Assembly (NCBI GenBank): GCA_019689635.1
Contig: JADGHB010000004.1
Coordinates: 1-64,000, forward strand
DNA length: 64,000 nucleotides
Direction: 5' to 3'
DNA from: Nevskia sp.
Lineage (GTDB): Bacteria; Pseudomonadota; Gammaproteobacteria; Nevskiales; Nevskiaceae
Shown one piece after another: positions 11,972 through 44,709 of this stretch. Every line of letters begins with the position of its first letter. The stretch's first letter is position 1. The translations under genes were made by a program, and so were the position numbers. The notes below the pieces were generated by a model. It was not told the DNA's origin. It did not search any database and saw nothing but the letters and a program-made list of their open reading frames with translations.

Positions 11972-13294
11972 ATGCCGCCTCGCCGACCATTCATCGTCAT
12001 TTCCGTTGTGCTGCTCGCTCTGGCGCTGGGCGCTTGCAGCGGGACGGTGGGGACCGGCAGCGGCCCCCAGCGCCTGGAAATCGTCCAGTCCACGGGCGCG
12101 CCGGCCAGTTCGATCGTCGCTTACCAGTGCCTGCGCAGTTCGCTCGCGGCGGTGCTGCATTTCAGCGACGGTTCGGCCGGCAATTTCACCAATCGCGTGG
12201 TCTGGAGCAGTTCCGATCCCGGCACGGTGCGCATCGCCAACAGGAACGAGGAGCCCATCCCCGGCACGCTCGACGGGTTCTATGCGCCGGGGACGCTGAC
12301 CCCGGTGGCCACCGGCAGCGCCGTGATCACCGCGGAGTATCAGGGACTCACCGCGCAGGTGCAGGTCAGCGTGCATCCGCTTGCTGCGCTGACCATCAAG
12401 CAGATCGTTCAGGGCAACGCGGTGGTCCCCGCCAATGGCGCGTTCACCCTGGGCGTGGGCACCCGGCAAGCGCTGCAACTGACGGCCCTGCTCGACAATG
12501 TCGAGACCGACATCACCAAGCTGGCCACCTGGTCGTTCGAGGTGCCCAACGACGGCGAAGCCTCCATCGATACCACGACCGCGACCGTGACCGCCAACGG
12601 CGCCGGCGGCCCGATGCAATTGAATGCGGGATTCGACGCCTGTCCGGATCCCCGCTTCCGGGCCAGTGTGCAACTCAGCGTCGCCGACATCCGCGGCATC
12701 AGCATCCAGCCGGAGTTCGCCGGCAATCCGCCGCTCATCGTCGGCAACAGCGAGAAGTTCAACGTCTTGGCGGATCTCGGCAACGGCCTGACCCAGGACC
12801 TGAGCGACCAGCCAGGCACCCAGCTCAGCTCCTCCGAGCCCACGCTGCTGCAATTCGGGGCGAGCGGGCAGGGCAACATCGCCTATGCCCTGAATCCCGG
12901 CGGCCCCATCGAGATCTTCGCCAGCTTCACCGGCAATGGCATCCGCTACGACGCGACCTCGCTCGTGGCCAGCACCATTTCCGCGACGCTCGACACGATC
13001 CGCGTCAGCCCGACGAGCGCGGAGGTCACCGCGGGCAGCCTCACGCCGGTGCAGTTCCGGGCCTACGGCAGCTACAACAGCGGCGGCCTGACGCAGGAGA
13101 TCACCCGCCAGGTCACCTGGTCGTCCAGCGACTCCAGCACGGCCACCATCAGCAATAGCGCTCAGACCGCCGGCCAGGCCCTCGGTTTGGCCGCCACGAG
13201 CCACGGCGACCGCGTGGTGACCATCACCGCCAACGACAACAACGCGATCATCGATGGCACGGATCAGGCGCTGCTCACGGTGCACGAACCCTGA
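11972..13294 (+). CDS. Lipoprotein with bacterial Ig-like (Big2-type) repeats
   Basis: 440 residues. A lipoprotein signal peptide ends at LALGAC, with Cys 22 as the likely lipidation site. The rest looks like tandem immunoglobulin-like repeats: pairs of VVWSSSDPGTVRIAN / VTWSSSDSSTATISN and GSAVITAEYQG / RVVTITAND are typical of Big2 domains. It starts four bases after aspS and shares its orientation. I do not recognise a specific function; surface adhesion or a structural role is likely. Confidence 0.75.
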   Translation: MPPRRPFIVISVVLLALALGACSGTVGTGSGPQRLEIVQSTGAPASSIVAYQCLRSSLAAVLHFSDGSAGNFTNRVVWSSSDPGTVRIANRNEEPIPGTLDGFYAPGTLTPVATGSAVITAEYQGLTAQVQVSVHPLAALTIKQIVQGNAVVPANGAFTLGVGTRQALQLTALLDNVETDITKLATWSFEVPNDGEASIDTTTATVTANGAGGPMQLNAGFDACPDPRFRASVQLSVADIRGISIQPEFAGNPPLIVGNSEKFNVLADLGNGLTQDLSDQPGTQLSSSEPTLLQFGASGQGNIAYALNPGGPIEIFASFTGNGIRYDATSLVASTISATLDTIRVSPTSAEVTAGSLTPVQFRAYGSYNSGGLTQEITRQVTWSSSDSSTATISNSAQTAGQALGLAATSHGDRVVTITANDNNAIIDGTDQALLTVHEP

Positions 13295-24540: not shown

Positions 24541-24677
24541 TCCGTATCCCGGTGATCGACGCCGGGCTGACGGTGCCCGGACGAACCGGCGGCGGGTGGC
24601 GCCGGCGCGGACCGGGAGAGGGCGGTTGCGTTTCGACCGACCGCTTCGGCGCGACAAGACTAAAAAGAGGGTTCGAA

Positions 24678-26375: not shown

Positions 26376-26378
26376 GCG

Positions 26379-27170
26379 ATGACGACGGAGAATCTGTGGT
26401 GGGCGTGTGTGGCGGTGTTCGTGCCGCTGTTTCCCTTCAGCATGATTTTCAATGCCGCCTATGCGGTCGCGCGCTGGACCTGGGTGCGCCTGGTCATGCT
26501 GCTGCTCTGGCCGCAGATCGGTCTGTGGCTCGTACCGGCGGCGAGCGCGGCGCCCGAGCATCGACTCGCGCCCTGGCTGAGCCTGCTGGGTCTGGCGACC
26601 GGGGTGTTCTACGCCTGGCGCCTGCTGTCGGTGCGCGCACTGAACGTGTGGGTCTCATTCTGGGCCACCTCGGCGTGGTCGCTGGCGTGGGCGGTGATGC
26701 TGGGTGGCGGGCACGGTGCGGATTTGCGCATCGCCATGGCCGGCGTTTCGGTTACCGCCGCGGCGCTGGCGTGCGGCGTCCGCGCGCTTGCCGACTGCTG
26801 GGGCGAGGCCTATCTCGGTCCTCGCCACGGCTTGGGCAGGCAGGCGCCGCGGCTGGCGGGAGTCCTCGTCGTGGGGCTGCTCGCGGCCATGGGCACGCCG
26901 GTGCTGCCGATGTTTTTCGTGATGCTATGGCTGGTGATGCACACTGACGGCTACGGCGTCGTCGGTGCGATGGTGGTATGGCTGCTGTGGAGCTGGTCTG
27001 CGGCTCGCGTCTGGCAAGTGCTGCTGTTCGGCGCCGAGCGGAAGGAGGCGATCTGGTCCCAAGAAGCGGTGACCGACCTCTCCCGGTTCAGTACGATGAG
27101 CGCGCTGCTGTTGGCGATCGCCGGCGCGGGCGCGGCCATGATCTGGAGCGCGAGATGGCTGATGCAATGA
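26379..27170 (+). CDS. Polytopic membrane protein between dabB and dabA
   Basis: 263 residues, almost entirely hydrophobic, with about seven or eight likely membrane helices. It starts three bases after dabB and overlaps dabA by 16 bases, so it is surely co-translated with the pump. Fragments such as GRQAPRLAGVLVVGLLAAMG resemble antiporter-like NuoM/MrpD helices, which suggests a shortened ion-channel module, but I do not recognise a named family. It may be a third membrane subunit of this DAB version. Function unknown. Confidence 0.75.
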   Translation: MTTENLWWACVAVFVPLFPFSMIFNAAYAVARWTWVRLVMLLLWPQIGLWLVPAASAAPEHRLAPWLSLLGLATGVFYAWRLLSVRALNVWVSFWATSAWSLAWAVMLGGGHGADLRIAMAGVSVTAAALACGVRALADCWGEAYLGPRHGLGRQAPRLAGVLVVGLLAAMGTPVLPMFFVMLWLVMHTDGYGVVGAMVVWLLWSWSAARVWQVLLFGAERKEAIWSQEAVTDLSRFSTMSALLLAIAGAGAAMIWSARWLMQ

Positions 27171-30100
27171 ACCTCGGCAGCATTCTGCGCGTCCACGCGA
27201 CCGCCTATGTCGCGGCGGAGCCGGTGCCGCTGTTCTGGCCCATGCGCACGTTCGTGCACAACAATCCCTTGCACGGGCTCGAGAATCGTGCGTTCACGCA
27301 GGCGGTGGACGAAGCGCGGCGACTGTTTCACGCCGACGTCTATCTGCCGCGCACGCAGTATCAGCGCTACCGCAGCCAGGGCAAGGTGCACGAGCCCACA
27401 CTGGAAGCCGAAACGCGCGAGCTGGCCGAGCAGGCGCCCGCCGTGGCCGGTATCGACTGGATGCGCTGGTTCTGCGCCGTCCGCGACGGCGCCAAGGATG
27501 GGTCTTATCTCGTGCCCGATGCCACGCCGCACGACGTGCTCGCGGCCTTGTCCGGACGCGCGTCCGAGGGCGTCGCCTCGGAACCCGAGGCGAACACCCG
27601 GCTGGCCGAGGCGCTGCCGCCGTGGCGACCGCTGACCGAGTGCGTCGACGCGCTGTGGGGCACGCGCCTGGCCGACGACCTCGACGAGTTGCTGATCAAA
27701 TCCTGCCTCGACTTCTTCGACGAGGATCAGTCGTCTTGGCGCATGCCGGGGCGCGAGCGCGGTTTCTACGTCGCGTGGGCAAGAATCGCGCGGCGCAACC
27801 TGCGTTTGTTCTTGCGCGGGCTCGCGTTGCGGCGCATCCTCGACGCGGCGCCGCGCGCGGACATCGCCATCGCTTACGTGATGCGCGAACTCGGCATCGC
27901 CGAGGAGCACTGGCAGGGTTATTTCACGCGCGAGTTCATGCGCCTGCACGGCTGGGCCGGATTCATTCGCTGGCGCTCGGGCGCGGCGCACTATCACTGG
28001 GGTCGTAAACATCCGGCGGATCTCGTCGACTACCTGGCCGTGCGACTGGTGTTCGCGCTGGCGCTGATCCAGGAAAGCGCGCGTCATCGCGGCACACCGG
28101 CCAACCGGGCCGAACTCGACGCCTTCATTCGTGAACGGCCGCAAGAGGCGCGCTTGCGCTATGCCTTGTACAGCGAAGGTCCACTGCCGGGTTTCGCGCA
28201 GCGCATCGACGATGCACTGGAACGCGGCGACGAGGCCGCTCTCGCCGCATTGGCCGAGACCTACGCGCAGCGCCTGCGTCGCGCGCGAGCCGAAGCGCAG
28301 GCGCAGCGCTTGCGCGACATCGCCGCGCGCGCCGGCACGCCGGTCGCGCGTCTGGCCGGGCTCAAGCTCGAGGAGCTCGAAGCCTTGCTGCAGGGCTTGC
28401 GGCGCTTCGAGCAGTGCGAGGGCGCGATCTGGCTGCGGGCCATGGAGCGCCAGGCCATCGAAGACTTCCTGCGGCAGATGCGCCCACCGGCGGATTTGCC
28501 GGCGGGCAAGCGTCCCTTCGTGCAAGCGCTGTTTTGCATCGACGTCCGCTCGGAGCGCTTACGTCGACATCTTGAGGCGGTGGGCGATTATCAGACCTTT
28601 GGCATCGCCGGATTCTTCGGCGTGCCGGTCGGTTTTCTGGGCTTCGGACGCGGCAGCGAAACCCATCTCTGCCCGGCGGTGATGCAGCCCAAAAACCTGG
28701 TACTGGAACTCCCGGCCGAGCCCGACTACGAGGATGAGGTTTTCTTCTCCACGCTGAGCCACGTGTTGCACGACTTGAAGAGCTCTGTGCTTTCTCCGTT
28801 CGTGACCGTGGAGGCCATCGGCGCGCTGTTCGGTTTCGACCTGTTGGGCAAGACCATGGCCCCGCTGGCTTATCACCGCTGGCGCCGGCGCATGGAAGCC
28901 CGTAAGCCGCGGACTCGCCTGTTGCTCGACAAGCTTTCGCGTGAGCAGGCCGATTCCATCGTGCGCGCCCTGCAGCGCGCCTTGATCGTCAAGGCGCTGC
29001 ACGCCGAACTGGGCATCGAGCGCGAGCGGGTCGATGACGACATCATCCGCGAGCTGCGCGAAACCGCGCTGGGGCATCAACGCGGCCCCACGGCGCTGAC
29101 GCGCGTGCTTGGGCTCGCACCCGAACGCGAAGCGCAGTTCATCACCAAGCTGCGCGAGATATACCGGGTCGATGCCGCGTATGCCGACCATCAGATGAAT
29201 CTGCTTGGCCGCGTCGGGTTTTCTTTCGACGAGCAAGTGCGCTATGTCTGGACGGCGCTGACGTCGATCGGGCTGACGCGCAATTTCTCGCGCTTCGTGC
29301 TGCTCATCGGCCATGGCAGCATCTCGGAGAACAATCCCTACGAAGCCGCTTTGGATTGCGGTGCCTGTGGCGGCAATCGCGGATTGGTGAGCGCGCGCGT
29401 GTTGGCGCAAATGGCCAACAAGCCCGACGTTCGCGCGCAATTGCGCGCGCAGGGCATCGAAATCCCCAGCGACACCTGGTTCGTGCCCGGCCTGCACGTG
29501 ACCTCGACCGACGAGGTCGAGCTCCACGATCTGGAGCTATTGCCGCCGCAACACCTGATTTACCTGGAGCGGTTGCGCAACGGATTGCGCGCCGCCAGCC
29601 GCTTGTGTGCCGCCGAACGTGTACCCACGCTGCTGCCCGAGTGCAAGGCGCCCAGACCCGCTCGGGCCCAGCGCATCGCGCGCGCCATGTCGCTGGACTG
29701 GTCGCAGGTTCGTCCCGAATGGGGGCTGTCGGGCAACCTGTATTTCGTCGTCGGCCGTCGTGGGCTTACGCACAAGGCCAATTTTCGCGGGCGCAGTTTC
29801 CTGCAGTCCTACGATTGGCGCTGCGATCCCAAGGGCCGCTTGCTGGAAAACATTCTCGCCGGCCCGGTGGTCGTCGGTCAGTGGATCAACATGGAGCATT
29901 ATTTCTCGGTGGTCGACAACGCCCATTTCGGCAGTGGCAGCAAGGTGTATCACAACGTCGCCGGTCGTTTCGGGGTGATGACCGGCAATCTGTCGGATCT
30001 GCGCACCGGTTTGCCCGCGCAAACCGTCCTGTATCGAGGCCGGCCGTTCCACGAACCGTTACGCATGGTCACCGTCATCGAGGCGCCGCTGGATTTCGCG

Positions 30101-30280
30101 CGACGCGCCATCGATGCCGTGGTCAAGGTCAAGAGCCTGGTCCAGGGACAGTGGATCCGTGTCGTGGTGGTCGATCCGACGAGCGATCATCAGGCGTTCT
30201 TGTACGACCGCGGGCAGTGGATCCGCTGCACGGCACGACCTTGTGACACCTCCACACACAGAGAGGTCGAGGCAGCATGA
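27155..30280 (+). CDS. dabA: DabA, carbonic-anhydrase-like subunit of the DAB pump (DUF2309)
   Basis: 1041 residues from ATG 27155; a second ATG (27167) overlaps the previous stop as ATGA and is equally plausible. The zinc site can be read directly: Cys 461 and Asp 463 in LFCIDVRSER, His 720 in LIGHGSISENNPYEAAL and Cys 735 in DCGACGG. The 15-residue His-Cys spacing equals that described for Halothiobacillus DabA (H524, C539). VPLFWPMRTFVHNNPLHGLE marks the N-terminal domain. It converts CO2 to bicarbonate in one direction when coupled to DabB, feeding the carboxysomes encoded next door. It ends in an ATGA overlap with the PII-like gene. Confidence 0.95.
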   Translation: MADAMNLGSILRVHATAYVAAEPVPLFWPMRTFVHNNPLHGLENRAFTQAVDEARRLFHADVYLPRTQYQRYRSQGKVHEPTLEAETRELAEQAPAVAGIDWMRWFCAVRDGAKDGSYLVPDATPHDVLAALSGRASEGVASEPEANTRLAEALPPWRPLTECVDALWGTRLADDLDELLIKSCLDFFDEDQSSWRMPGRERGFYVAWARIARRNLRLFLRGLALRRILDAAPRADIAIAYVMRELGIAEEHWQGYFTREFMRLHGWAGFIRWRSGAAHYHWGRKHPADLVDYLAVRLVFALALIQESARHRGTPANRAELDAFIRERPQEARLRYALYSEGPLPGFAQRIDDALERGDEAALAALAETYAQRLRRARAEAQAQRLRDIAARAGTPVARLAGLKLEELEALLQGLRRFEQCEGAIWLRAMERQAIEDFLRQMRPPADLPAGKRPFVQALFCIDVRSERLRRHLEAVGDYQTFGIAGFFGVPVGFLGFGRGSETHLCPAVMQPKNLVLELPAEPDYEDEVFFSTLSHVLHDLKSSVLSPFVTVEAIGALFGFDLLGKTMAPLAYHRWRRRMEARKPRTRLLLDKLSREQADSIVRALQRALIVKALHAELGIERERVDDDIIRELRETALGHQRGPTALTRVLGLAPEREAQFITKLREIYRVDAAYADHQMNLLGRVGFSFDEQVRYVWTALTSIGLTRNFSRFVLLIGHGSISENNPYEAALDCGACGGNRGLVSARVLAQMANKPDVRAQLRAQGIEIPSDTWFVPGLHVTSTDEVELHDLELLPPQHLIYLERLRNGLRAASRLCAAERVPTLLPECKAPRPARAQRIARAMSLDWSQVRPEWGLSGNLYFVVGRRGLTHKANFRGRSFLQSYDWRCDPKGRLLENILAGPVVVGQWINMEHYFSVVDNAHFGSGSKVYHNVAGRFGVMTGNLSDLRTGLPAQTVLYRGRPFHEPLRMVTVIEAPLDFARRAIDAVVKVKSLVQGQWIRVVVVDPTSDHQAFLYDRGQWIRCTARPCDTSTHREVEAA

Positions 30281-30603
30281 GCACGATCAAGTTAAGTCCG
30301 CTGAAAAAACTCGAAATCATTCTCGAGGGGGCGCATCGCGAATTCGCCACCGCCTTGCTCGAACGCGCCGGCGTCACCGGTTACACCATCGTCGGCAATT
30401 TGTCCGGCAAGGGCAGCCACGGCTTTCGCGAAGGTCACCTCATGTTCAACGAAGACGACGCGCTGATCATGATCATCGCCGCCGTGCGCGAGGAACTTGT
30501 GGCACCGTTGTTCGAAGGTTTCCAGCCCTTTTTCGAAACCCACTCCGGCGTGATTTTCGTCAGCGACATCCAGGTGCGGCGGCCGGTCAAATTCGGCGCT
30601 TAG
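30277..30603 (+). CDS. PII-like signalling protein of the DAB operon
   Basis: 108 residues, fitting the PII/CutA-type ferredoxin-like fold in length and hydrophobic pattern: KKLEIILEGAHREFATALLERAGVTGYTIV, a loop NLSGKGSHGFREGH where PII proteins carry the T-loop, then ALIMIIAAVREELVAPLF and GVIFVSDIQV. It resembles the carboxysome-associated PII homologues that sense adenine nucleotides and bicarbonate, so it may gate the DAB pump. It starts on the last base-quartet of dabA (ATGA). It ends tail-to-tail with cbbR, the two stops overlapping (30600-30603). Confidence 0.82.
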   Translation: MSTIKLSPLKKLEIILEGAHREFATALLERAGVTGYTIVGNLSGKGSHGFREGHLMFNEDDALIMIIAAVREELVAPLFEGFQPFFETHSGVIFVSDIQVRRPVKFGA

Positions 30604-31526: not shown

Positions 31527-31738
31527 GGCGAATACATAAGTGGACCTAACTAGATGTATCAAAAACAACGATTAGAGTTTATGTTAGTGCTCCTTTATGT
31601 TCCTGTCACGCGAGGCGACGGACCGAACCAGGACGCGTGACCGGCATTCCCGAGTCGCGCGGGCCCGCCAGGGTGACGCGGTCAGCCGCAGTTCGTCGAT
31701 CGCCGAACCCGATAGCGCGCGTGAAGGAGTGCTTGAAG
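31527..31738. promoter_or_regulatory. cbbR-cbbL divergent control region
   Basis: The 31527-31605 part is AT-rich. It holds an inverted repeat ATACAT (31532-31537) / ATGTAT (31554-31559) with a 16-base spacer, and a direct repeat TTTATGTT at 31578-31585 and 31594-31601 (16-base period). Both are plausible CbbR contact sites. The rest, up to GAAGGAG at 31723-31729 (the cbbL ribosome site), is a GC-rich leader. Which element is bound is inferred. Confidence 0.55.
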
Positions 31739-33160
31739 ATGGCCGTCAAAACCTACCAGGCCGGCGTCAAGGAGTATCGGCAAACCTACTGGCAGCCGGA
31801 TTACGTGCCCCTCGACACCGACCTGCTGGCCTGTTTCAAGATCACCCCGCAGCCGGGCGTGGATCGCGAGGAGGCGGCGGCGGCGGTGGCCGCGGAGTCG
31901 TCGACCGGCACCTGGACCACGGTGTGGACCGACCTGCTCACCGATCTCGACTACTACAAGGGCCGCGCCTATCGGATCGAGGATGTGCCCGGTGACGATA
32001 CGTGCTTTTACGCTTTCGTGGCGTATCCGATCGACCTGTTCGAGGAAGGCTCGGTGGTCAACGTGTTCACCTCGCTGGTGGGCAACGTGTTCGGGTTCAA
32101 AGCCATTCGTGCGCTACGACTGGAGGACGTGCGCTTTCCCATCGCTTATGTGAAGACCTGTGGCGGCCCGCCGCACGGCATCCAGGTCGAGCGCGACAAG
32201 CTCAACAAGTACGGCAGACCCCTGCTGGGCTGCACCATCAAGCCCAAGCTCGGCTTGTCGGCCAAGAACTACGGCCGCGCGGTGTATGAATGCCTGCGCG
32301 GCGGCCTGGATTTCACCAAGGACGACGAGAACGTCAACTCCCAGCCGTTCATGCGCTGGCGCGCCCGCTTCGACTTTGTGATGGAGGCCGTCGAGAAGGC
32401 CGAACGGGAAACGGGCGAGCGCAAGGGTCATTACCTCAACGTCACGGCGCCGACGCCCGAGGAGATGTACAAGCGTGCCGAGTACGCCAAGGAAATCGGC
32501 GCCCCCATCATCATGCACGACTACATCACCGGGGGCTTTTGCGCCAACACTGGTCTGGCCAATTGGTGTCGTAACAACGGGGTCTTGTTGCACATCCATC
32601 GTGCCATGCACGCCGTGCTCGACCGCAATCCGCACCATGGCATCCATTTCCGCGTGCTCGCCAAGATTTTGCGGTTGTCCGGCGGCGACCACCTCCATAC
32701 CGGCACCGTGGTTGGCAAGCTCGAGGGTGATCGGGCAGCCACCCTCGGCTGGATCGACCTGCTGCGGGAATCCTTCATTCCCGAAGATCGTTCGCGCGGC
32801 ATTTTCTTCGATCAGGACTGGGGCTCCATGCCTGGGGTCTTCGCGGTCGCTTCCGGCGGCATCCACGTCTGGCACATGCCGGCGCTGGTCACCATCTTCG
32901 GCGACGATTCGGTGCTGCAGTTCGGTGGCGGAACGCTGGGTCATCCCTGGGGCAATGCCGCCGGGGCCCACGCCAACCGCGTCGCATTGGAAGCCTGCGT
33001 GCAGGCGCGCAATGAAGGACGCAATCTGGAAAAAGAGGGCAAGGAGATCCTCACCGCTGCGGCACAGCACTCGCCAGAACTCAAAATCGCGATGGAGACC
33101 TGGAAAGAGATCAAGTTCGAATTCGATACCGTGGACAAACTCGACATCGCCAACCGATGA
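31739..33160 (+). CDS. cbbL: RuBisCO large subunit, form IA
   Basis: 473 residues (start [18 protein letters not shown], typical of carboxysomal form IA). The enzyme carboxylates ribulose-1,5-bisphosphate. The active-site block [17 protein letters not shown] carries the carbamylated lysine. Also present are [30 protein letters not shown] and loop 6 (the VVGKLEG region), with [14 protein letters not shown] near the C-terminus. It is followed by cbbS and the csoS2 scaffold, so the enzyme is packaged in alpha-carboxysomes. It is the first gene of the 13-kb operon. Confidence 0.98.
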
Positions 33161-33231
33161 AGTGCGAGTGAGATCCGTGATCGATCGCGTTTTCACACAT
33201 CGACCCGTTTTTGTGGATTGAGGATATTTCC

Positions 33232-33558
33232 ATGGCCGTTCAAGCCTATCGCTCGACACTCAAGAACGAAACGTTTTCGTTCCTGCCGGCACTGACACCC
33301 GAACAGGTGCGCCGGCAGATCGCCTACGCCATCCAGCAGGGCTGGAACCCGGCCGTGGAGCACACCGAACGCGGGACGCCGGCGAAAGTCAGCTTCTGGT
33401 ACATGTGGAAACTGCCGATGTTCGGCGAGCAATCGGTGGACGCCGTGATGAGCGAGCTCGAAGCCTGCCATCGCGAGTTCCCCGACCACATGGTGCGCTT
33501 CGTGGCCTACGACAACTATGCCCAAAGCCAGGGCACGGCGTTCGTCGTCTACCGCTGA
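33232..33558 (+). CDS. cbbS: RuBisCO small subunit, form IA
   Basis: 108 residues starting at [19 protein letters not shown]; the ATG at 33232 has GAGGA about eight bases before it. Family motifs include [32 protein letters not shown] and [20 protein letters not shown]. It caps the CbbL octamer and helps contact the CsoS2 N-repeats. It lies 71 bases after cbbL. Confidence 0.97.
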
Positions 33559-33663: not shown

Positions 33664-35427
33664 ATGACAACCGTCGCACCGAGTCGCATGACTGTCACGC
33701 TGTCCGGACGTGAGCTGGCCTTGCAACGACGCCAGGCGCTGGCGCGCCATGGCAAGACCGGCATCGTCAATTGCGCCAGGGCGCAACCCGCGATACGCAC
33801 GGTGCCACCGCCGGGCGTCGCCGGGGACCGCCTCACGGCGGCGGCCGAGCCACTTGCGGCACAGGTGCGACCGTCGGCGCACACCGGACCAATCGCAGTA
33901 TCCCACGGTCGCCTGATCGCCATGCAGCGTCGGCAGGCCTTGTCGTCGATCGGTCGGGCGGGGTTGACAACGAGCGCCGCGTCGCGGCCCAGCGGCAGGA
34001 TCAAGGCGCGGCACATCGAGCCCGCACCGCCCAAGGTGGAGGAAGCGCACACGCTGTCTGGTCAGACCATCACCGGCACGATGGTCGAGCGCAGTCCCAA
34101 AGTGACCGGCACCGAGACCGGTGCTTGCCGGGTCATCACCGGCACGGAATATCTCGGCGCCGAGCAGTTCCGCGACCAGTGCCGCACCAAGCCGCCCTCG
34201 ACGCCGCGCAAGGTCAGCGTCATGTCGAGCCGTGGCGGCCGCCCGGTGACGGGCGCCGCCGTCGACCGTGCCGCGAAAGTGACCGGCAACGAAGTGGGTT
34301 CTTGCCGCACGGTCACCGGCAGTCAGTACTACAACTCAGCGGATTTCGCGAGCCTGTGCGAGTCCGGCGGGCCGCGCAAGGTGGGCGAGATGCACACCTT
34401 GAGCGGACAGGTCGTCACCGGCTCGGAAGTGGCGCCCAGTCCCAAGCTCACCGGTGACGAATCCTTCCAATGTCACCCGGTGACGGGCACGGATTACATC
34501 AGCCCGCGTCAACTCGAGACGGTGTGCCCTCCGGAAAAGGTTCCGGATGTAAAGCCGGTGAACAAGGTAGCGGTGGATGCCACGCTACGCGGTCATCGAG
34601 TTTCCGGCAGCGCGGTCGGGCGGTCCGACAAGGTTACCGGGGATGAGGCCGGCGCCTGCGCGCCGGTCAGCGGAACGCCTTACATCGGACGGACTCAGTA
34701 CGCCGAGTTTTGTCCGCCGTCGAGCATCGACGCGCAGGCCGCGCGCGTGCCGGACAGTGCCGTGATTCCGGCGACCGTGGTCACCGGCGATCGCCCCGGC
34801 GCCGGAGGATCCCGGGTAACCGGTGACGAGCGCGGCGCGTGCGAAACGGTGTCGGGGACGCCTTATCTCGGTGCCGACACCCTGCCGCCGCAGTGTTCCA
34901 GCAGCGGGCGCTTCGTTTCCCGTTCCCGCGCGAGCGAGGCGCCGCCGCGTCCACCACCCCCGAAAGCGTTCAGCATCGTCAGTCCGGCTCGTCAGGCGCG
35001 CGAGCGTCATGGATCCGAGGTCACGGGCAGCAGCACCCGCTCGGAGCGCATCACTGGGCCCATCAACAAGGCCGACGGCCTGATCACGGGCACTCCCGAA
35101 TTCCGTCACCGCGACGACGTCCGCCGTCAGGCGCCGGATACTCAGTCGTCATCCGCAGCGCTGCGGCTCAGCGGCGAAGGCAGCCAGCGGGGACGCCCGG
35201 TTTCGGGCGACGCCTGGAACCCCGCGACGCGCGTCACCGGCACCGAGGGCACGTCCAGCGTGGTGCGTAACCTCTCGCTGCGGGGACAGGCGCGCGGTGC
35301 CGGCGTCAACGCGGCGAGGTTTCGCGAGATCGAACGGCCGCCGGTTCCGGACTCGGTGGTCACCGGCTCGTCAGGCAATACCCGCAAGGGCGCCACGGTG
35401 ACCCTCTCCGGCGGAGCCAGAGGCTGA
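33664..35427 (+). CDS. csoS2: Carboxysome assembly scaffold CsoS2, compact form
   Basis: 587 residues, shorter than usual CsoS2 (about 700-900). The N-terminal region has only two RuBisCO-binding repeats (QRRQALARHGK near residue 21 and QRRQALSSIGR near 88). The middle region has five repeats with VTG-type motifs and paired cysteines: C155/C173, C214/C232, C270/C288, C332/C350 and C393/C411, every pair 18 residues apart. The C-terminal region has further VTG/ITG motifs without the Cys pairs and ends with VTLSGGARG, the shell-anchoring end. CsoS2 links RuBisCO to the shell proteins. GAGG precedes the ATG. Confidence 0.93.
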   Translation: MTTVAPSRMTVTLSGRELALQRRQALARHGKTGIVNCARAQPAIRTVPPPGVAGDRLTAAAEPLAAQVRPSAHTGPIAVSHGRLIAMQRRQALSSIGRAGLTTSAASRPSGRIKARHIEPAPPKVEEAHTLSGQTITGTMVERSPKVTGTETGACRVITGTEYLGAEQFRDQCRTKPPSTPRKVSVMSSRGGRPVTGAAVDRAAKVTGNEVGSCRTVTGSQYYNSADFASLCESGGPRKVGEMHTLSGQVVTGSEVAPSPKLTGDESFQCHPVTGTDYISPRQLETVCPPEKVPDVKPVNKVAVDATLRGHRVSGSAVGRSDKVTGDEAGACAPVSGTPYIGRTQYAEFCPPSSIDAQAARVPDSAVIPATVVTGDRPGAGGSRVTGDERGACETVSGTPYLGADTLPPQCSSSGRFVSRSRASEAPPRPPPPKAFSIVSPARQARERHGSEVTGSSTRSERITGPINKADGLITGTPEFRHRDDVRRQAPDTQSSSAALRLSGEGSQRGRPVSGDAWNPATRVTGTEGTSSVVRNLSLRGQARGAGVNAARFREIERPPVPDSVVTGSSGNTRKGATVTLSGGARG

Positions 35428-35438
35428 AGCGTCGGACG

Positions 35439-36995
35439 ATGAACACGCTCAAGCGCATGCAAGCGCTGCGGCGGCAACCGCAGGAACCGGGTTTGCGGCC
35501 GGCGGCCGCGCGGGTGCCGAACCACGCCGGCGCAGACCGTGCGCCCGCGCCCGCCAATCCGGCTTGCGTGCTCGGGCCTGACCAGCCTTGCGAGCACGGC
35601 TTGGTGGATGTCGAACTCAACACGCTGCTGCAGGCCTACGAGCAGGCGGTGCGACAACGCTTCCTGGGGATCGTCGGCGTTTTGAAGACGCTGTCCGCCC
35701 GTCAGCATGAAGTGGATTTCGCGAGCTGGGCGACGGCGTTCGCCGAGCAGCAACTTGGCTACTCCTTGCCTGCGAGCCTGCTGGAGCGCGCCTGGGTTGG
35801 CGGGCTCGATCTCCGGCGCCTGCACTCCTATTGCATTTTCAACAGTCTGAAACGGTGCGTCGACGCGGCAGCGACGGAGCAATCCGCCTGGCGTGCGCGC
35901 TTGCCCATCGATCCCTCATTCCTTCGGCGCTGCGGCTATCACACCGTGGACATCAGCCCCTGCGCGGACGGACGTCTGCAGGGATTGGTGCCGTTCATTC
36001 TGCGCATGCAGCCGGCGCCGGAGGTTTACGTCAAGGCCTATGCCGGGGCGCTGTTCGACATCGAGTCGGACATGGCCGACTGGGCGCACCGCGAGGTGGA
36101 GCGTCTGTCCGGGACGATGGCTGACGGCGAACGATTGAATTATCTCAAGATCGCCGTTTATCACTACAGCAGTTCTTTGCCCGCCGAGCACGGCTGCGCG
36201 GCGCATGGCAGCGACGGCCGTCAGGCGGCCGAGTCGGCCCTCGAACGACTCGAGGCGCTGCGCGCAGCGATCGATCGCACCTACGGCGCCGGCGCCGCGC
36301 CGGACGTGCTATTGATCGGCGTGGACACCGATCTGGATGCCTTACGCATCCACTTGCCGGATGGCCGGGGCGATCTCCATCCTGAGCGTTACGTCGAGAC
36401 CGCGGCGATCTACCGGCACACGCTGGGCCTGCCGCCAGCGGCCGTGACGACGCGGATCGCCCAGATCGTCGCGGAAGCGGAGCAGGCGGATGGACCGGCA
36501 CAAGGGCGGGGCGCGATGCACGAGGGCCTGCGCAGCCTGATCCTGGCGCTCGCACAAGCCAATCTGTCGCAAATCGAATACGTCATCCGCTACCACGCCG
36601 GACGCTATGCGGTCGTCGGGCACGACGAGGAGTGCATCGTCATCGGCGAGGCGCCGAGCCAGCTCCAGCTGCGCAATCTTTTTTATTTCGCGCATCTGGA
36701 TACCGTGGAGGAAGGTGCCGCCGATCTCGACGTCGGAATCAAGATTTTCCGCAGCTTGAACTGCTTGCAAGGTTTGCCCGTGCCGGTGCTGGTGCATTTC
36801 AGCTATGACGACCGGGTGACCGGCTCTCGGACCCGCGCCGTCGATCGGGCGCGCCGGGTGCGTGACGCGATGGCACGGCGTTATTCCGACCTCGTGCGAG
36901 ACGGTCTGCTCAATTTCCAAGTGGCGGTCAGCGATCGTCATGGAGATGCCTGCTGCGTGTTCATTCCCGAGGCCGCCGACGATGCCGCGCATTGA
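35439..36995 (+). CDS. csoSCA: Carboxysomal carbonic anhydrase CsoSCA
   Basis: 518 residues, similar to Halothiobacillus CsoSCA (514). The epsilon/beta-type zinc ligands can be placed: Cys 175 with the Asp 177-Arg 179 pair (SPCADGR), His 242 in AVYHYSSS and Cys 253 in EHGCAAHG. The 11-residue His-Cys spacing equals the known enzyme (H242, C253). A disordered, arginine-rich N-terminus (MNTLKRMQALRRQPQ) probably tethers it to RuBisCO. Inside the shell it turns bicarbonate into CO2. It starts 12 bases after csoS2. Confidence 0.95.
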   Translation: MNTLKRMQALRRQPQEPGLRPAAARVPNHAGADRAPAPANPACVLGPDQPCEHGLVDVELNTLLQAYEQAVRQRFLGIVGVLKTLSARQHEVDFASWATAFAEQQLGYSLPASLLERAWVGGLDLRRLHSYCIFNSLKRCVDAAATEQSAWRARLPIDPSFLRRCGYHTVDISPCADGRLQGLVPFILRMQPAPEVYVKAYAGALFDIESDMADWAHREVERLSGTMADGERLNYLKIAVYHYSSSLPAEHGCAAHGSDGRQAAESALERLEALRAAIDRTYGAGAAPDVLLIGVDTDLDALRIHLPDGRGDLHPERYVETAAIYRHTLGLPPAAVTTRIAQIVAEAEQADGPAQGRGAMHEGLRSLILALAQANLSQIEYVIRYHAGRYAVVGHDEECIVIGEAPSQLQLRNLFYFAHLDTVEEGAADLDVGIKIFRSLNCLQGLPVPVLVHFSYDDRVTGSRTRAVDRARRVRDAMARRYSDLVRDGLLNFQVAVSDRHGDACCVFIPEAADDAAH

Positions 36996-37613: not shown

Positions 37614-37910
37614 ATGGCTGAGATGACAGGTATTGCCCTGGGCATGATCGAGACGCGCGGTCTGGTGCCGGCGATCGAGGCGGCGGACGCGATGACGAAG
37701 GCGGCGGAGGTGCGTTTGATCGGTCGGCAATTCGTGGGCGGCGGTTATGTGACGGTGATGGTGCGCGGCGAGACCGGCGCGGTGAACGCCGCGGTGCGCG
37801 CGGGCGCGGATGCCTGCGAGCGGGTGGGCGACGGCCTGGTGGCCGCGCACATCATCGCGCGCGTGCACAGCGAGGTCGAGGGAATCCTTCCCACGGCGCC
37901 GAGCGTTTGA
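37614..37910 (+). CDS. csoS1: Carboxysome shell hexamer protein CsoS1, first copy
   Basis: 98 residues with a single BMC domain: GIALGMIETRGLVPAIEAAD, AEVRLIGRQFVGGGYVTVMV and GDGLVAAHIIARVHSEVE. It forms the flat hexamers whose central pore admits bicarbonate and RuBP. AAGGAG lies ahead of the ATG. From 37641 to 37882 it is base-for-base identical to the next gene, so the two products differ only at their ends. The assignment to CsoS1A versus CsoS1C is not meaningful here. Confidence 0.96.
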   Translation: MAEMTGIALGMIETRGLVPAIEAADAMTKAAEVRLIGRQFVGGGYVTVMVRGETGAVNAAVRAGADACERVGDGLVAAHIIARVHSEVEGILPTAPSV

Positions 37911-38219
37911 GGCGGCGCGGCGGCTTTCCAACTTATTTCAGGAGTATGCGATGGCAGGAGTAACGGGCATTGCCCTAGGCATGATCGAGACGCGCGGTCT
38001 GGTGCCGGCGATCGAGGCGGCGGACGCGATGACGAAGGCGGCGGAGGTGCGTTTGATCGGTCGGCAATTCGTGGGCGGCGGTTATGTGACGGTGATGGTG
38101 CGCGGCGAGACCGGCGCGGTGAACGCCGCGGTGCGCGCGGGCGCGGATGCCTGCGAGCGGGTGGGCGACGGCCTGGTGGCCGCGCACATCATCGCGCGCG
38201 TGCACAGCGAGGTCGAGGG
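37641..38219 (+). repeat. Pair of identical 242-bp direct repeats inside the two csoS1 genes
   Basis: Bases 37641-37882 and 37978-38219 match without a difference by eye, including third codon positions. The flanking codons differ (for example CTGGGC versus CTAGGC just before the block, and GGAATC versus GGGATT just after it). The repeat start-to-start distance is 337 bases. Confidence 0.9.
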
Positions 38220-38289
38220 GATTCTGCCGACCAGGCCGCAGCACAACGGCGGTGGTCGCGATGCGGAAATCACCTCGACGCGCAGCTGA
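37951..38289 (+). CDS. csoS1B: Carboxysome shell hexamer protein CsoS1B, extended second copy
   Basis: 112 residues starting MAGVTGIALGMIETRGL. The BMC domain is identical in sequence to the first copy over 80 residues. It then carries a 14-residue-longer polar tail (RPQHNGGGRDAEITSTRS), as in the CsoS1B type of Halothiobacillus. An AGGAG lies eight bases upstream of the ATG. The tail may point outwards or bind a partner. Confidence 0.95.
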   Translation: MAGVTGIALGMIETRGLVPAIEAADAMTKAAEVRLIGRQFVGGGYVTVMVRGETGAVNAAVRAGADACERVGDGLVAAHIIARVHSEVEGILPTRPQHNGGGRDAEITSTRS

Positions 38290-38740: not shown

Positions 38741-39007
38741 GTGACCGATTGGCTCGATGGCTGGCAACGCTGCGGCAAGCCGGCGACGCTCACGCGGCGT
38801 TTCACTTTCGAGGGCTACGCGCAGACACGCGCGTTTCTCGCGGCGCTGGCGCAGTTGTCGGAAACGCTGGGCCGCCATCCCCAGAACATCAGCTTCGGCA
38901 CCACCTATGCCAACATCACGCTGGAAGCCGAGAATGGCGCGGACTTCAGCGAAAGCGAAAAACAGTTCGCCGCACGCATCGCAAGCTTGGCGGAGCCGCG
39001 TCCATGA
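38741..39007 (+). CDS. acRAF: Alpha-carboxysome RuBisCO assembly factor acRAF (pterin dehydratase-like)
   Basis: 88 residues from GTG 38741. It matches the pterin-4a-carbinolamine dehydratase-like fold that is degenerate in the carboxysome family: [32 protein letters not shown] and [12 protein letters not shown]. In alpha-carboxysome operons this protein acts as a RuBisCO assembly chaperone rather than an enzyme. It overlaps mcdA by ATGA (39004-39007). Confidence 0.9.
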
Positions 39008-39648
39008 GCGCGCATCCGCCGCGGGTGATTGCCGTCATCAACCAGAAAGGCGGTGTCGGCAAGACCACGGTGGCCATGAACCTGGCGGCCGGACTCGCGC
39101 GGCGCGGCTCAACCGCGGTCCTCGATCTCGATCCGCAGGCATCGGCCACGCAATGGGCGGCGGCGGGTCGGCAGCCTTATCCGGCGACGGTCAGGCCGTG
39201 GCGTGCGGATGCCGCCCAACACGATCTGCGCGAGGAGTTTCGCGCGTTCCAGTATGTCGTGCTCGACTGCCCGCCCGCGGTTGACGCCAGGGCGGCTCAT
39301 CTCGCGCTGGGTGTCTGCGATGTGGCCTTGATCCCGGTGTTGCCATCGCCGGTGGATTTGTGGGCCAGTCTGCGCCTGCCGCGCGAGATCGAGGAAGCGC
39401 GCGAACGCAATCCGCAGTTGCGCGCCTGCTTGTTGCTCAACCAGATCGAATTGCGCAGCGCGCTTTCGGCGGGAATGCGCGACGCCCTGGCCGAATTCGG
39501 CGTGCCGGTGCTGCGCGCGTCTCTCCGCCGCCGCGCTGTTTACAAAAACACCGCGCTCGACGGCGTGTCGGTTTATCAAATGGGTTCGCGAGGCTTGTCC
39601 GCCGTCGCGGAAATCGAGGGCATCATCGAGGAGGTTCTCGCCCCATGA
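39004..39648 (+). CDS. mcdA: Carboxysome-positioning ATPase McdA (ParA family)
   Basis: 214 residues starting [17 protein letters not shown]. The deviant Walker A (KGGVGKTT), the DLDPQASAT switch and the VVLDCPP Walker B are complete. The product is a ParA/MinD-type ATPase that coats the nucleoid and, with McdB, spreads carboxysomes through the cell. The start overlaps acRAF by ATGA and the end overlaps mcdB by four bases. Confidence 0.93.
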
Positions 39649-39890: not shown

Positions 39891-40805
39891 ATGCAGGACG
39901 AACCAACGATGCGCACCTATCCAGCGAGAAGAAGCGCGGCGCTGCATTCGGTCTCCGTCAGCGAGCGCAGTGCTGCGCGGCCGGCGGCCGAGGTCGCCGC
40001 GTCTGGCGACGCGCTCGCTGCGTATCGCGTCACCGAGCGACCGTACTACCGTGAAGTCGGTGACGAGGTGGCCTTGTACGAGACCGCGTATTCGGTACGC
40101 ATGCCGATGATGCTCAAGGGGCCGACGGGCTGCGGCAAGACCCGCTTCGTCGAATACATGGCGTGGAAGCTGGGCAAGCCGCTCATCACCGTGGCCTGCA
40201 ACGAAGACATGACGGCCTCCGATCTGGTCGGGCGCTTCCTGTTGGACGCCCAGGGCACACGCTGGCAAGACGGGCCTTTGGCGTTGGCCGCGCGCTTTGG
40301 TGCCATCTGCTATCTCGACGAAGTCGTGGAAGCACGGCAAGACACCACGGTGGTCATCCATCCGCTCACCGATGCGCGCCGCATCCTGCCGTTGGAGAAA
40401 AAAGGCGAGATCGTCCGCGCCCATCCCGATTTCCAGCTCGTCATTTCTTACAACCCCGGTTACCAGTCGCTGATGAAGGATCTCAAGCAGTCGACCAAGC
40501 AACGCTTCGGGGCGCTGGACTTCAACTATCCCGAACACGAGATCGAGGCCGAGATCGTGGCGCACGAATCGGGTGTTGCGCTGGAGGTGGCCAAAAGTCT
40601 GGTCCACATCGCCGAACGCGCCCGTAACCTCAAGGGTCACGGACTCGATGAGGGTATTTCTACCCGCATGCTGATCTACGCCGGTTCGCTCATCGCCAAG
40701 GGAGTGGCGCCGCTCGCCGCCTGCCGCGTGGCGCTGGTGCGGCCGATCACCGATGATCCCGACATGCGCGATGCGCTGGATGCGGCGGTGACCACCTACT
40801 TCTGA
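39891..40805 (+). CDS. cbbQ: RuBisCO activase AAA+ subunit CbbQ
   Basis: 304 residues of the MoxR AAA+ family. Walker A GPTGCGKT is at residues 77-84, Walker B is YLDEVVEA, and sensor [19 protein letters not shown] follows. CbbQ hexamers work with CbbO to remove inhibitory sugar phosphates from RuBisCO. The N-terminus is about 40 residues longer than common CbbQ (about 265). GAGGA at 39880-39884 supports ATG 39891; MRTY (39909) is the alternative. Confidence 0.95.
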
Positions 40806-40870: not shown

Positions 40871-43228
40871 ATGGCCATCCACCTCGAAGAGTTCCAGGAC
40901 TTGCTCGACGAACTGCCCGGCGGCGCTCAGGACTACCTGCGCGCGTCCTGGAACGATGCCGCCCGCGCGTTTTCCGCACGCGGCCTGGACCATTTGCTCA
41001 AGGGCGCCGTCGCGTTGCACGAGCTGGGTCGCGGTGAAGAGCTGGTGGTCAGCTTCCTCCAATCCATGCCCGAGGTGGCGCGCGCCATCGGCGAGGACGT
41101 GTTGCCCGATCTGGTCAACTTCCTGCTCGGCATGGCCTCGAAGACCTCCGGGCAGGTGTTGGCCTTGATCTGCGGCACCGCGCCGCTGGCCGCTTCACGG
41201 CTGGGCGACGCCGAGCTGTTCCGCGGTTATCTCCAGGTGCTCGAAATCCTGCTGGCGCAGGCGCCGCGCGGTCTGCGCCCGATGCTGGAGAACCTCGACC
41301 GGCTGCTCACCCAGCTCACGCTCGGCGGTCTGCGGCGCTGGGTGCAATGGGGCGCGCAGGCGTACAAAGCCGACTTCGACGGCCAGGTCGCTTACTTTTC
41401 TCTGCAGAGCGCGGACGCTTTGGCCGTGCTGCAGCAGGAACGCAAGGGCACGCTGTTCGTGGACATTCAACGGCGGCTCAATATCTACCTGCGTGCCATG
41501 TGGGGACGCGATTTCTTTCTGCGCCCGACCGCGGGTGACTACGAAAACCGCGCGGGGCTCAAGCCGTACATCGAACACTACGTGATCCACCTCGCCGACG
41601 CCTACGACGACTACCAGCCGCTCGGACCTGAAACACCGGCGCCGCAACGTGTGAGCGCCTTGGAAATCTACCGCGCGGCGGCCAATCACTGTGCCGCGCA
41701 TCTCGTGTTCACGCCAACGCCACTATCGATGCAGCAACTGCTGCCGGTGCAGATGGCGCTCATCGAGGCGATCGAGGACGCACGGGTCGAGACGCTGGCC
41801 ATCCGTGAGTTTCCAAACATGCGCGAAGCCTGGCTGGCTTTGCATCCTGTCGTCGATTACGCGGCGGAGCCGGCGACAGTGGGCGAGCTGCTCGACCGCC
41901 TGGCGCGTGCGCTGCTCGAAGAGCAGTCGGCGGATCCGCATCCCTGGGTGATGCAGGCCGTGGCCGCGTTCCGCGCTCAGACCGATCTTGCGTCCAATCA
42001 GACGAGCTGGAATCTCGGGGTCGAGCTGTCACATGGCCTGATGGCGCTGCCGTTGCCGCCCTATGACCGTCGGCGCGACGGTTTGAGCGCCATCTACCGT
42101 GACGACAACCGCGCGGTTTGGCAGTTGGAGGAGTACGACGAAGCCCAGGCGCTGGCGGCTACTTGGGAGACGCGCCAGCAGGTGCGCAAGAAGGTCAACC
42201 TCATCGAGATGGTCAACGCGCTGGACAACGAGTTCGCCGGCGACGACGCGCAGGAAGTGTGGGAGCTGCCGACGGAGTATTTCTTCGACGACGGCCAGAC
42301 CATCAACGCGCTCGAGGGCCGTCCGCCGATCTCGGCGCCGTTCCACTACCCCGAGTGGGACTACCAGATCCAGCTCGCACGGCCCAACTGGGTCACCGTG
42401 CTGGAGCGCCATCCACCGCTAGGCGAGCTCGACGTGATCGAAGGCATCCTCGCCGAGAACAGGCCGGTGATCTCGCGCTTGAAGTTTCTGATCGAATCGA
42501 TGGTGCCGCAGGGCATGCAGCGCATCCGTCGTGTCGAGGACGGTGACGACATCGATCTTGACGCCGCGATCCACGCACTCATGGACATTCGACTGGGTCG
42601 GCAGCTCGACCCGCGCATCATGATGCGCCGGCGGCGAGCGTTGCGCCAACTCGCGGTGCTGGTGCTGCTCGACCTGTCGGAGTCTGCCAATGACAAAGTG
42701 CGCGGACAAGACTACTCGGTGCTGGATCTCACGCGCGCGTCGACGGTGCTGTTGGCCGACGCTCTCGACCGTATCGGTGATCCTTTCGCCATCCATGGAT
42801 TTTGTTCGGATGGACGACACGACGTGCACTACTATCGCTTCAAGGATTTCGATCAACCTTACGGCGAGCTCGTCAAGGCGCGGCTCGCCGGCATGAAGGG
42901 GCGATTGTCGACGCGCATGGGCGCGGCGCTGCGTCATGCCGCGCATTACTTGGAACAGCAACACAAGTCGAGACGCGTTGTGTTTGTCATCACCGATGGC
43001 GAGCCCGCGGACAACGACGTGCGCGACCCGCAGTACCTGCGCTACGACGCCAAACAGGCCGTCGAAGAACTGGCGCGCAAGGGGATCACCGTCTACGCGC
43101 TTTCACTCGATCCCCACGCGGACCAATACGTGTCGCGCATCTTCGGCGTAAAAAACTTCACCGTCATCGATCAGGTCGAGCGGCTGCCCGAACGCTTGCC
43201 TCTGCTTTATCTGAGCCTGACGCGGTGA
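40871..43228 (+). CDS. cbbO: RuBisCO activase adaptor CbbO with von Willebrand A domain
   Basis: 785 residues. The C-terminal von Willebrand factor A domain has a MIDAS motif ([12 protein letters not shown], DxSxS) and [10 protein letters not shown]; the long helical N-terminal part binds the CbbQ hexamer. The pair is the Q/O-type RuBisCO activase. It begins 65 bases after cbbQ. It reads into csoS1D with a 10-base gap. Confidence 0.94.
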
Positions 43229-43238
43229 GGCGCGATCG

Positions 43239-43871
43239 ATGAAAATCACGCTGCGCACCTACGTGTTCATGGACGCCCTGCAACCGCAGTTGGCGTCTTA
43301 CCTTGCGACTTCTTCGCAGGGCTTCCTGCCGATTCCCGGCGATGCCTGCATGTGGATCGAGGTCGCCCCCGGCATGGCCGTGCATCACCTCTCCGACATC
43401 GCGCTCAAAGGAACGAACGTGCGCATGGGGGAACAGGTGGTCGAGCGCGCGTTCGGCTCGATGGAGATCCACTACCGCAACCAGAGCGAAGTCCTGGCGG
43501 CGGGCCAGCTGGTGCTCAAGCAACTCAACACCACCGAGGCGTCGCGGTTGCGCTGCAAGGTGGCCTGGAACGAGATCATCCGCGCCATCACCCCCGATCA
43601 CACCACGCTGATCAACCGCCAGTTGCGCAAGGGGTCGATGATCCTGCCCGGCAAAAGCATGTTCATCCTCGAAGTGGAACCGGCGGGGTACATCGTCTAC
43701 GCCGCCAACGAGGCCGAGAAAGCGGCGCACATCACCTTGGTCGACGTCAAGGCCTTCGGCAATTTCGGACGCCTGACCATGATGGGATCCGAAGCGGAAG
43801 CCGAGCAAGCGCAGCGCGCCGCCATCGCGGCGATCGAGCAGCTCAACCAGCGCGCCAGACCGCACGACTGA
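43239..43871 (+). CDS. csoS1D: Tandem-BMC shell protein CsoS1D
   Basis: 210 residues with two fused BMC domains in one chain: an N-terminal domain ([20 protein letters not shown], ...[13 protein letters not shown]) and a second with [16 protein letters not shown]-type strands. This matches CsoS1D, which forms pseudohexameric trimers with a gated large pore, often stacked in pairs. The pore may pass RuBP and PGA. It lies ten bases after cbbO, a typical position for proteobacterial operons. Confidence 0.93.
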
Positions 43872-43884
43872 TGGAGCCGTGACC

Positions 43885-44709
43885 ATGGAAATCGACTCCA
43901 TCGCCAAGAAGCTGCTGTTCTCGACGGTGCGCGTGGATACCGAGCTCGAGGATGGCGGCCAAGGTTCCGGCACGGCCTTCATCATCACCCACGTCCATGC
44001 CAAAGGCGCGACCCCGTTCATCGTCACCAACCGCCACCTGGTGGAAGGCGTGCGCCGCGGCGGGCTCGTCTTCACGCGCAAACAAGAGGGCAAGCCGGCC
44101 CTGGGCCAGCGGTTTCAGCTCAACATCGACGAGTTTCCGGCCGCTTGGTTTTACCATCCCGACGAAACCGTGGACCTGGCTGTGGTGCCCTTGCGTCCTC
44201 TGGAGCGCGCCGCACGCGCGCTCGGCGTCGAGCTCTACTATCACGCCGTGGACAGCCGGCGCATTCCCGATGCTGCGGCGGTGCGCGGATTCGACGCCCT
44301 CGAGGAGATCCTGTTCGTGGGCTATCCCAGCGGGGTGTGGGACCACGTCAATCTGATGCCCATTCTGCGCCGCGGCACCACGGCCACACCGCTGGAGCTG
44401 GACTTCGAAGGCCACAAGCAGTTCCTCATTGACGCCGCCGTCTATCCCGGTTCCAGCGGCAGTCCGGTATTCGTCCTGCGCGGCGACCCGGCGCGCCCTC
44501 ATCGACCGAACGGCATGACGATTTGGTTCGCAGGGGTCATCGCCGCCGTTTTCTTTCGCGAGGAGACCAACCAGCTCGTGCCCGGTCCGGTTCCGGCTCA
44601 AACCGCCTCGCCGGCGGTCAGCGCCGAAATGATCGATCTGGGTCTGGTGATCAAATCCGAGGCGGTGCGCGAACTCATCGAGGCATTCTTGCGCCGCTGG
44701 ATCGAATGA
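43885..44709 (+). CDS. Trypsin-like serine peptidase at the end of the carboxysome operon
   Basis: 274 residues. The ATG at 43885 was chosen because GGAG (43873-43876) is eight bases upstream; the GTG at 43879 is too close. The triad is complete: His 51 in VTNRHLVEG, Asp 98 in ETVDLAVVPL and Ser 191 in YPGSSGSPVF. No signal peptide or membrane segment is visible, so it should act in the cytoplasm. It begins 13 bases after csoS1D. I know of no assigned carboxysome role; processing or quality control of shell or scaffold proteins is a guess. Confidence 0.88.
   Translation: MEIDSIAKKLLFSTVRVDTELEDGGQGSGTAFIITHVHAKGATPFIVTNRHLVEGVRRGGLVFTRKQEGKPALGQRFQLNIDEFPAAWFYHPDETVDLAVVPLRPLERAARALGVELYYHAVDSRRIPDAAAVRGFDALEEILFVGYPSGVWDHVNLMPILRRGTTATPLELDFEGHKQFLIDAAVYPGSSGSPVFVLRGDPARPHRPNGMTIWFAGVIAAVFFREETNQLVPGPVPAQTASPAVSAEMIDLGLVIKSEAVRELIEAFLRRWIE

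What the first reader, a model, noticed from the sequence alone, without database searches (positions are those of the whole stretch)
43885..44709. Cytoplasmic trypsin-like peptidase encoded with the carboxysome
A complete His-Asp-Ser triad (H51, D98, S191) sits in a protein without a signal peptide, 13 bases after csoS1D, at the end of the cso-mcd-cbbQO operon. I know of no described carboxysome role for such a peptidase. It might trim CsoS2, degrade misfolded shell or control RuBisCO turnover.
Basis: partly seen in the sequence, partly recalled or inferred. Interest (0 to 1): 0.7.

Follow-up and report, generated by a model that had tools for sequence, protein, structure and literature searches.

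The report
Dedicated protease of one carboxysome lineage
The gene is real: one lineage of carboxysomes (the protein shells in which some bacteria fix CO2) carries its own cytoplasmic serine protease, apparently recruited once from a phage- and plasmid-borne family and kept through several transfers between species, and I found no description of a carboxysome protease in the papers I could search.

Summary
The ORF at 43885-44709 encodes a 274-aa protein with no signal peptide. It lies 13 nt after csoS1D, at the end of the cso-mcd-cbbQO operon.

I found 22 further loci in Nitrobacter, Nitrosomonas, Thiomonas and other Pseudomonadota. In 19 the gene directly follows csoS1D. In one it follows cbbO, in a genome without csoS1D. 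In two it sits beside the bicarbonate transporter gene sbtA. These peptidases form one clade (98/99). In a CsoSCA tree of 66 alpha-carboxysomes the 12 peptidase-bearing loci also form one clade (100/100), so one gain and no sampled loss. dN/dS is 0.05-0.14, like cbbO and cbbQ. Most alpha-carboxysomes (56 loci examined) lack the gene.

Outside carboxysomes the family is PADLOC's candidate defence family PDC-S45, found in prophages, on plasmids and in other operons.

Best reading: a recruited, lineage-specific protease for carboxysome or CO2-concentrating proteins. The substrate is unknown; CsoS2, McdB, CbbO and SbtA are untested candidates. I found no published description.

The parts
43885..44709 (+). 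The peptidase: HtrA/Trypsin_2-fold serine protease, 274 aa, PDC-S45 family, no PDZ domain and no signal peptide; triad H51, D97, S191
43239..43871 (+). csoS1D, tandem-BMC shell protein, 13 nt upstream
   Evidence: PDB 7dhq E=5e-109; CsoS1D 3f56 E=2e-79
40871..43228 (+). cbbO, vWA adaptor of the CbbQO Rubisco activase
39891..40805 (+). cbbQ, MoxR-type AAA+ Rubisco activase
39013..39648 (+). mcdA (ParA-like carboxysome positioning ATPase)
38741..39007 (+). [quoted passage not shown]
37614..38289 (+). two csoS1 hexameric shell protein genes
35439..36995 (+). csoSCA, carboxysomal carbonic anhydrase
33664..35427 (+). csoS2, scaffold protein (candidate substrate)
31727..33558 (+). cbbL-cbbS, form IA RubisCO

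Best explanation
The gene encodes a cytoplasmic serine protease with an HtrA/Deg-type catalytic domain and no PDZ domain. It was recruited once from a phage- and plasmid-borne peptidase family (PDC-S45) into the operon of one alpha-carboxysome lineage, and it now acts on proteins of the carboxysome or CO2-concentrating mechanism. Shown here: a single origin, linkage to carboxysome or bicarbonate-transport genes in every member found, co-inheritance with the operon, purifying selection, an intact triad, and a predicted protease fold. Inferred: that it is active, that it is made with the operon, and that its substrates are CCM proteins. The mechanism I think most likely is limited proteolysis of exposed or disordered segments, as HtrA proteases do, to remove or trim unassembled or damaged components such as the intrinsically disordered CsoS2 and McdB or the CbbO adaptor, adjusting carboxysome assembly or turnover.
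For: 12 of 12 close homologs (70-82% identical) directly follow csoS1D, all but one shown with cbbQO and other cso genes. Five of five Nitrosomonadaceae genomes with an intact csoS1D locus have the gene next to it. Further linked loci are L086, L087 and L218, and L085 after cbbO. L216 and L217 sit by sbtA in genomes that carry CsoS2. The peptidase tree gives one clade of carboxysome-linked rows, 98/99 and 100/100. The CsoSCA tree of 66 loci puts all 12 peptidase-bearing loci in one clade, 100/100 with one change. dN/dS is 0.05-0.14, and Spearman correlations of its distances with those of other operon proteins are 0.71-0.97. Triad invariant in 48 sequences. Model pLDDT 89.2, pTM 0.88; best PDB matches Deg2, DegP, DegQ and DegS, Z 19-20.
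Against: No activity, expression or interaction data exist here. Most alpha-carboxysomes work without the gene (56 loci examined; several of those contigs end early). The family elsewhere serves other, unknown ends. In two genomes the gene lies beside bicarbonate transporters rather than in the cso operon, so its target could be transport rather than the carboxysome. No CsoS2-type Rubisco-binding motif was found in it.
Confidence: 0.6

Rival explanations
1. Anti-phage cargo: a PDC-S45 defence-type peptidase inserted once at the 3' end of the operon, which still serves defence and uses the operon only for expression and spread.
For: PADLOC PDC-S45 E=2.5e-87. All 48 aligned relatives match PDC-S45. 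Relatives are common in prophage contigs, many near contig ends, and on plasmids beside recombinases. The carboxysome clade nests among prophage proteins.
Against: No loss in the sampled clade and dN/dS like the operon's enzymes, whereas defence genes usually turn over fast. When rearranged the gene stays with CCM genes. PDC-S45 is only a candidate family, and a relative also sits inside a hydrogenase hyp operon.
Confidence: 0.15
2. CbbQO partner: the peptidase is the third member of a MoxR-vWA-peptidase set, with CbbQ (MoxR AAA+) and CbbO (vWA) presenting or gating substrates, for example dead-end Rubisco or CbbO itself.
For: Every peptidase-bearing operon read at sufficient length has cbbQ and cbbO, and in G163 the gene directly follows cbbO without csoS1D. 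MoxR-vWA systems with trypsin peptidases are described in PMC7159879.
Against: Many cbbQO-bearing carboxysome loci lack the peptidase, and CbbQO activates Rubisco without a protease (PMC8718961). In G1353 and G1324 the gene is away from cbbQO.
Confidence: 0.15
3. Regulator of bicarbonate uptake: the peptidase controls the level of SbtA- or SulP-type transporters or the PII-like SbtB, and belongs to the wider CO2-concentrating mechanism rather than the shell.
For: In G163 the next genes are sbtA, sbtB and a LysR regulator; in G1324 and G1353 it lies beside sbtA, in G1353 between a SulP transporter and sbtA.
Against: In the other loci the gene ends the operon, and no sbtA was noticed directly after it where flanks were read.
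Confidence: 0.08

Closest known systems
HtrA/Deg proteases (MEROPS S1C: DegP, DegQ, DegS, plant Deg2)
   Same: Catalytic-domain fold (Z 19-20), triad order, DAA-to-Ser spacing like HtrA, a C-terminal helix aligned.
   Different: No PDZ domain, no signal peptide, only 14-21% identity; cytoplasmic.
PADLOC PDC-S45 (PDLC05022), candidate single-gene defence family
   Same: Full-length profile match, E=2.5e-87; same family by sequence.
   Different: A distinct clade fixed in carboxysome/CCM gene sets; antiphage activity unproven for the family and not indicated here.
MamE/MamO, HtrA-type proteins encoded in the magnetosome island (from memory; one MamE title seen in a reference list)
   Same: An HtrA-fold protease encoded with a bacterial organelle.
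   Different: MamE is membrane-bound with PDZ and haem domains; different organelle; no orthology tested.
Peptidase of the GRM3 microcompartment locus (PMC4207490)
   Same: A peptidase gene in a microcompartment operon; the authors suggest a regulatory role.
   Different: Catabolic compartment; whether it is the same family was not tested.
MoxR-vWA ternary conflict systems (PMC7159879)
   Same: MoxR AAA+, vWA protein and trypsin-type peptidase encoded together.
   Different: Here the pair is the Rubisco activase CbbQO; no VMAP-type third protein seen.

Membership tests
Trypsin_2 (PF13365) serine peptidases | Profile match above the curated cut-off | tested here: met
   37.1 bits against 27.6
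Trypsin_2 (PF13365) serine peptidases | Conserved His-Asp-Ser triad | tested here: met
   H51, D97, S191 invariant in 48 sequences
Trypsin_2 (PF13365) serine peptidases | Proteolytic activity | not testable with these tools
   Needs purified protein and an S191A control
HtrA/Deg (S1C) | Chymotrypsin-like protease domain of the HtrA type | tested here: met
   Z 19.7, rmsd 2.5-2.7, 188-192 residues aligned
HtrA/Deg (S1C) | One or more C-terminal PDZ domains | tested here: not met
   Protein ends after the protease domain; only Trypsin_2 found
HtrA/Deg (S1C) | Export to periplasm or membrane, as for most bacterial HtrA proteins | tested here: not met
   No hydrophobic N-terminal segment
PDC-S45 | Full-length match to PDLC05022 | tested here: met
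   E=2.5e-87, profile 11-285 of 293
PDC-S45 | Location in a prophage, plasmid or defence neighbourhood | tested here: not met
   Carboxysome/CCM neighbourhood in all 23 loci; N. hamburgensis carries the whole operon on a plasmid
PDC-S45 | Anti-phage activity | not testable with these tools
   No experiment available
Alpha-carboxysome gene set | Conserved linkage to and co-inheritance with cso/cbb genes | tested here: met
Alpha-carboxysome gene set | Physical presence in, or action on, the carboxysome | not testable with these tools
   Needs proteomics or interaction assays
MoxR-vWA ternary conflict systems | MoxR AAA+ and vWA genes adjacent | tested here: met
   CbbQ and CbbO
MoxR-vWA ternary conflict systems | VMAP, iSTAND or FtsH third component | tested here: inconclusive
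   The peptidase shows only Trypsin_2; other operon genes were not searched for VMAP

The most novel reading that the evidence does not exclude
A phage- or plasmid-borne defence peptidase was domesticated into a protease dedicated to a bacterial microcompartment: it cleaves a carboxysome scaffold or adaptor (CsoS2, McdB or CbbO) to control assembly, positioning or turnover in one alpha-carboxysome lineage.
Probability: 0.3. Interest if true: 0.75.

Novelty: new variant of a known kind. Interest (0 to 1): 0.57.

Why it matters
How carboxysomes are quality-controlled and dismantled is largely open, and to my knowledge no protease had been assigned to them. A conserved, operon-encoded protease in cultured species such as Nitrobacter winogradskyi, Nitrosomonas eutropha and Thiomonas delicata makes the question directly testable with one deletion and one S191A trap mutant. 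It is also a clean case of a mobile-element peptidase recruited to an organelle, and could be a useful part for controlling engineered carboxysomes.

Tried and rejected
Recent or chance neighbour: rejected by 22 further linked loci and by the trees. Strict csoS1D partner: rejected, since G163 has no csoS1D at E<=1e-10 genome-wide yet keeps the gene. Universal carboxysome gene: rejected, absent from 56 other alpha-carboxysome loci. Rubisco-binding N-peptide motif like that of CsoS2: none found (simple pattern only). Solved close homolog: none by sequence; only folds. Papers: 10 searches and targeted reading of four carboxysome-locus papers gave no mention of an alpha-carboxysome protease; many subscription papers are not held, including the N. 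hamburgensis genome paper and the MamE papers. Not reached: complex prediction, CsoS2 frameshift-site comparison, a metagenome scan. The genome-contig scan used the single window protein and missed more divergent members of the clade, so 23 loci is a lower bound. Fisher's test on genome co-occurrence (p=0.001) ignores phylogeny and is not used as evidence.

Full report
What is there. The ORF at 43885-44709 starts with ATG, ends with TGA and encodes 274 residues. It lies 13 nt after csoS1D, which follows cbbO; the tail of the operon is acRAF-mcdA-mcdB-cbbQ-cbbO-csoS1D-peptidase, behind cbbLS-csoS2-csoSCA-csoS4AB-csoS1-bfr. The protein matches Pfam Trypsin_2 and, over its full length, PADLOC family PDC-S45 (E=2.5e-87). 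It has no NCBIfam match at E<=0.001. H51, D97 and G189-S-S-G-S-P194 are invariant across 48 diverse homologs. No hydrophobic N-terminal segment was found.

Fold. An AlphaFold2 model from a 48-sequence alignment has pLDDT 89.2 and pTM 0.88. Foldseek and VIA-align place it with the protease domains of HtrA/Deg proteins: Deg2, DegP, DegQ, DegS, Z 19-20, 14-21% identity. There is no PDZ domain. So it is a stand-alone HtrA-type protease domain.

Distribution. The window's genome has one copy, and no close homolog exists in 57 other genomes of its family; of those 57 only one has CsoS2, a divergent operon without the peptidase. This fits arrival of the whole operon by transfer. The genome-collection scan plus a plasmid search gave 12 loci with 70-82% identity: Nitrobacter species (including the N. 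hamburgensis plasmid), Thiomonas delicata, Nitrosomonas eutropha and several MAGs. In all 12 the gene directly follows csoS1D. One of these, L028 labelled Burkholderiales, encodes a peptidase identical to that of Nitrobacter L029 and may be a mis-binned contig. Every Nitrosomonadaceae genome with csoS1D has the peptidase next to it.

Wider survey. In 369 genomes of the class, 72 have CsoS2 and 17 have a PDC-S45 match. Reading the cso regions shows the peptidase linked in G163, G320 and G415 besides the window, and absent from 56 other cso loci, of which several are cut by contig ends. G078, G334 and G248 have a distant PDC-S45 protein elsewhere in the genome. A search of 379 genomes of the order of Thiomonas added G1419 (linked after csoS1D), G1353 and G1324. 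The last two have CsoS2, but their peptidase lies beside sbtA; in G1353 it lies between a SulP transporter gene and sbtA, about 18 kb from cbbO. G163 has no csoS1D anywhere; its peptidase follows cbbO by 7 nt and precedes sbtA, sbtB and a LysR regulator. Every member of the clade found so far thus sits with carboxysome or bicarbonate-uptake genes: 23 loci with the window, 20 of them directly after csoS1D.

History. In a tree of 35 family members the 20 carboxysome-linked proteins are one clade (98/99). With prophage relatives added they remain one clade (100/100) nested among prophage proteins. In a CsoSCA tree of 66 alpha-carboxysomes the 12 peptidase-bearing loci are also one clade (100/100, one change). 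So one gain in one carboxysome lineage and no loss in the sample, through the transfers that brought this lineage to Nitrobacter, Nitrosomonas and Thiomonas. dN/dS is 0.05-0.14, like cbbO and cbbQ, and pairwise distances track those of other operon proteins (Spearman 0.71-0.97). The gap to csoS1D is 2-74 nt in the loci measured and about 80-95 nt in Nitrosomonadaceae.

The family elsewhere. PDC-S45 relatives sit alone on plasmids beside recombinases, in prophage contigs, often near their ends, between hypB and an AhpC/TSA gene in a hydrogenase hyp operon (L146), and beside an AAA/M41 protein, a kinase-WD40 protein and an FHA-vWA protein (L145). The only paper found that names PDC-S45 reports it in Sinorhizobium prophages as a PADLOC candidate (PMC12429752). 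A defence origin is therefore plausible but unproven.

How it may work. Inferred: an active protease made with the operon that removes or trims exposed segments of CCM proteins. Disordered CsoS2 and McdB and the CbbO adaptor are natural candidates, but nothing here tests them. A CbbQO partnership is attractive because MoxR-vWA pairs elsewhere work with trypsin-type peptidases (PMC7159879), and every peptidase-bearing operon read at sufficient length has cbbQO. A role in bicarbonate uptake is suggested by the sbtA neighbours in three genomes. Continued defence is the main rival, weakened by the absence of loss and by the strong purifying selection.

Known or not. Axen 2014 lists alpha-carboxysome accessory genes without a protease and notes a peptidase only in the GRM3 locus (PMC4207490). 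Papers on atypical carboxysome loci, on carboxysomal CbbQO and on CsoCbbQ do not mention one. RefSeq-derived annotation calls the N. hamburgensis gene only 'serine protease'. The library lacks many subscription papers, so a mention elsewhere cannot be excluded.

Noticed in passing
L146:9237-10091: A PDC-S45 peptidase gene sits inside a hydrogenase maturation operon: hypA, hypB, peptidase, AhpC/TSA protein, hypF, hypC, hypD.
   Followed up: partly
L145:2852-12856: The non-carboxysome relative L010 (45% identical) lies between an AAA/M41 (FtsH-like) 1200-aa protein and a kinase-WD40 protein, followed by an FHA-vWA protein: a conflict-system-like cluster.
   Followed up: partly
L217:812-1135, L216:13446-13781, L034 about 12646-12948: A small (about 100 aa) protein without Pfam match lies between the peptidase and sbtA in two genomes, with a relative downstream of the N. 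eutropha operon.
   Followed up: no
L176, L186, L190, L192, L196, L197: Several prophage PDC-S45 proteins end in a cysteine-rich CPCGSGKRxKxCCG motif (SEC-C-like), suggesting a fused metal-binding tail.
   Followed up: no
L153-L208: Many prophage copies of the family lie within about 1-2 kb of a viral contig end, a usual place for cargo genes.
   Followed up: no
L036:6842-7375: In N. eutropha Nm24 csoS1D is split over two contigs (C4 and C30), with a cut lysR next to it: assembly break or rearrangement.
   Followed up: partly
window 33664-35427: CsoS2 is short here (587 aa) compared with 891 aa in N. hamburgensis (locus L025).
   Followed up: no
window 24552-30603: Genes for a proton-conducting subunit, a DUF2309 (DabA-like) protein and a PII-like protein precede the operon, resembling a DAB inorganic-carbon pump; the same order is on the N. 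hamburgensis plasmid.
   Followed up: no
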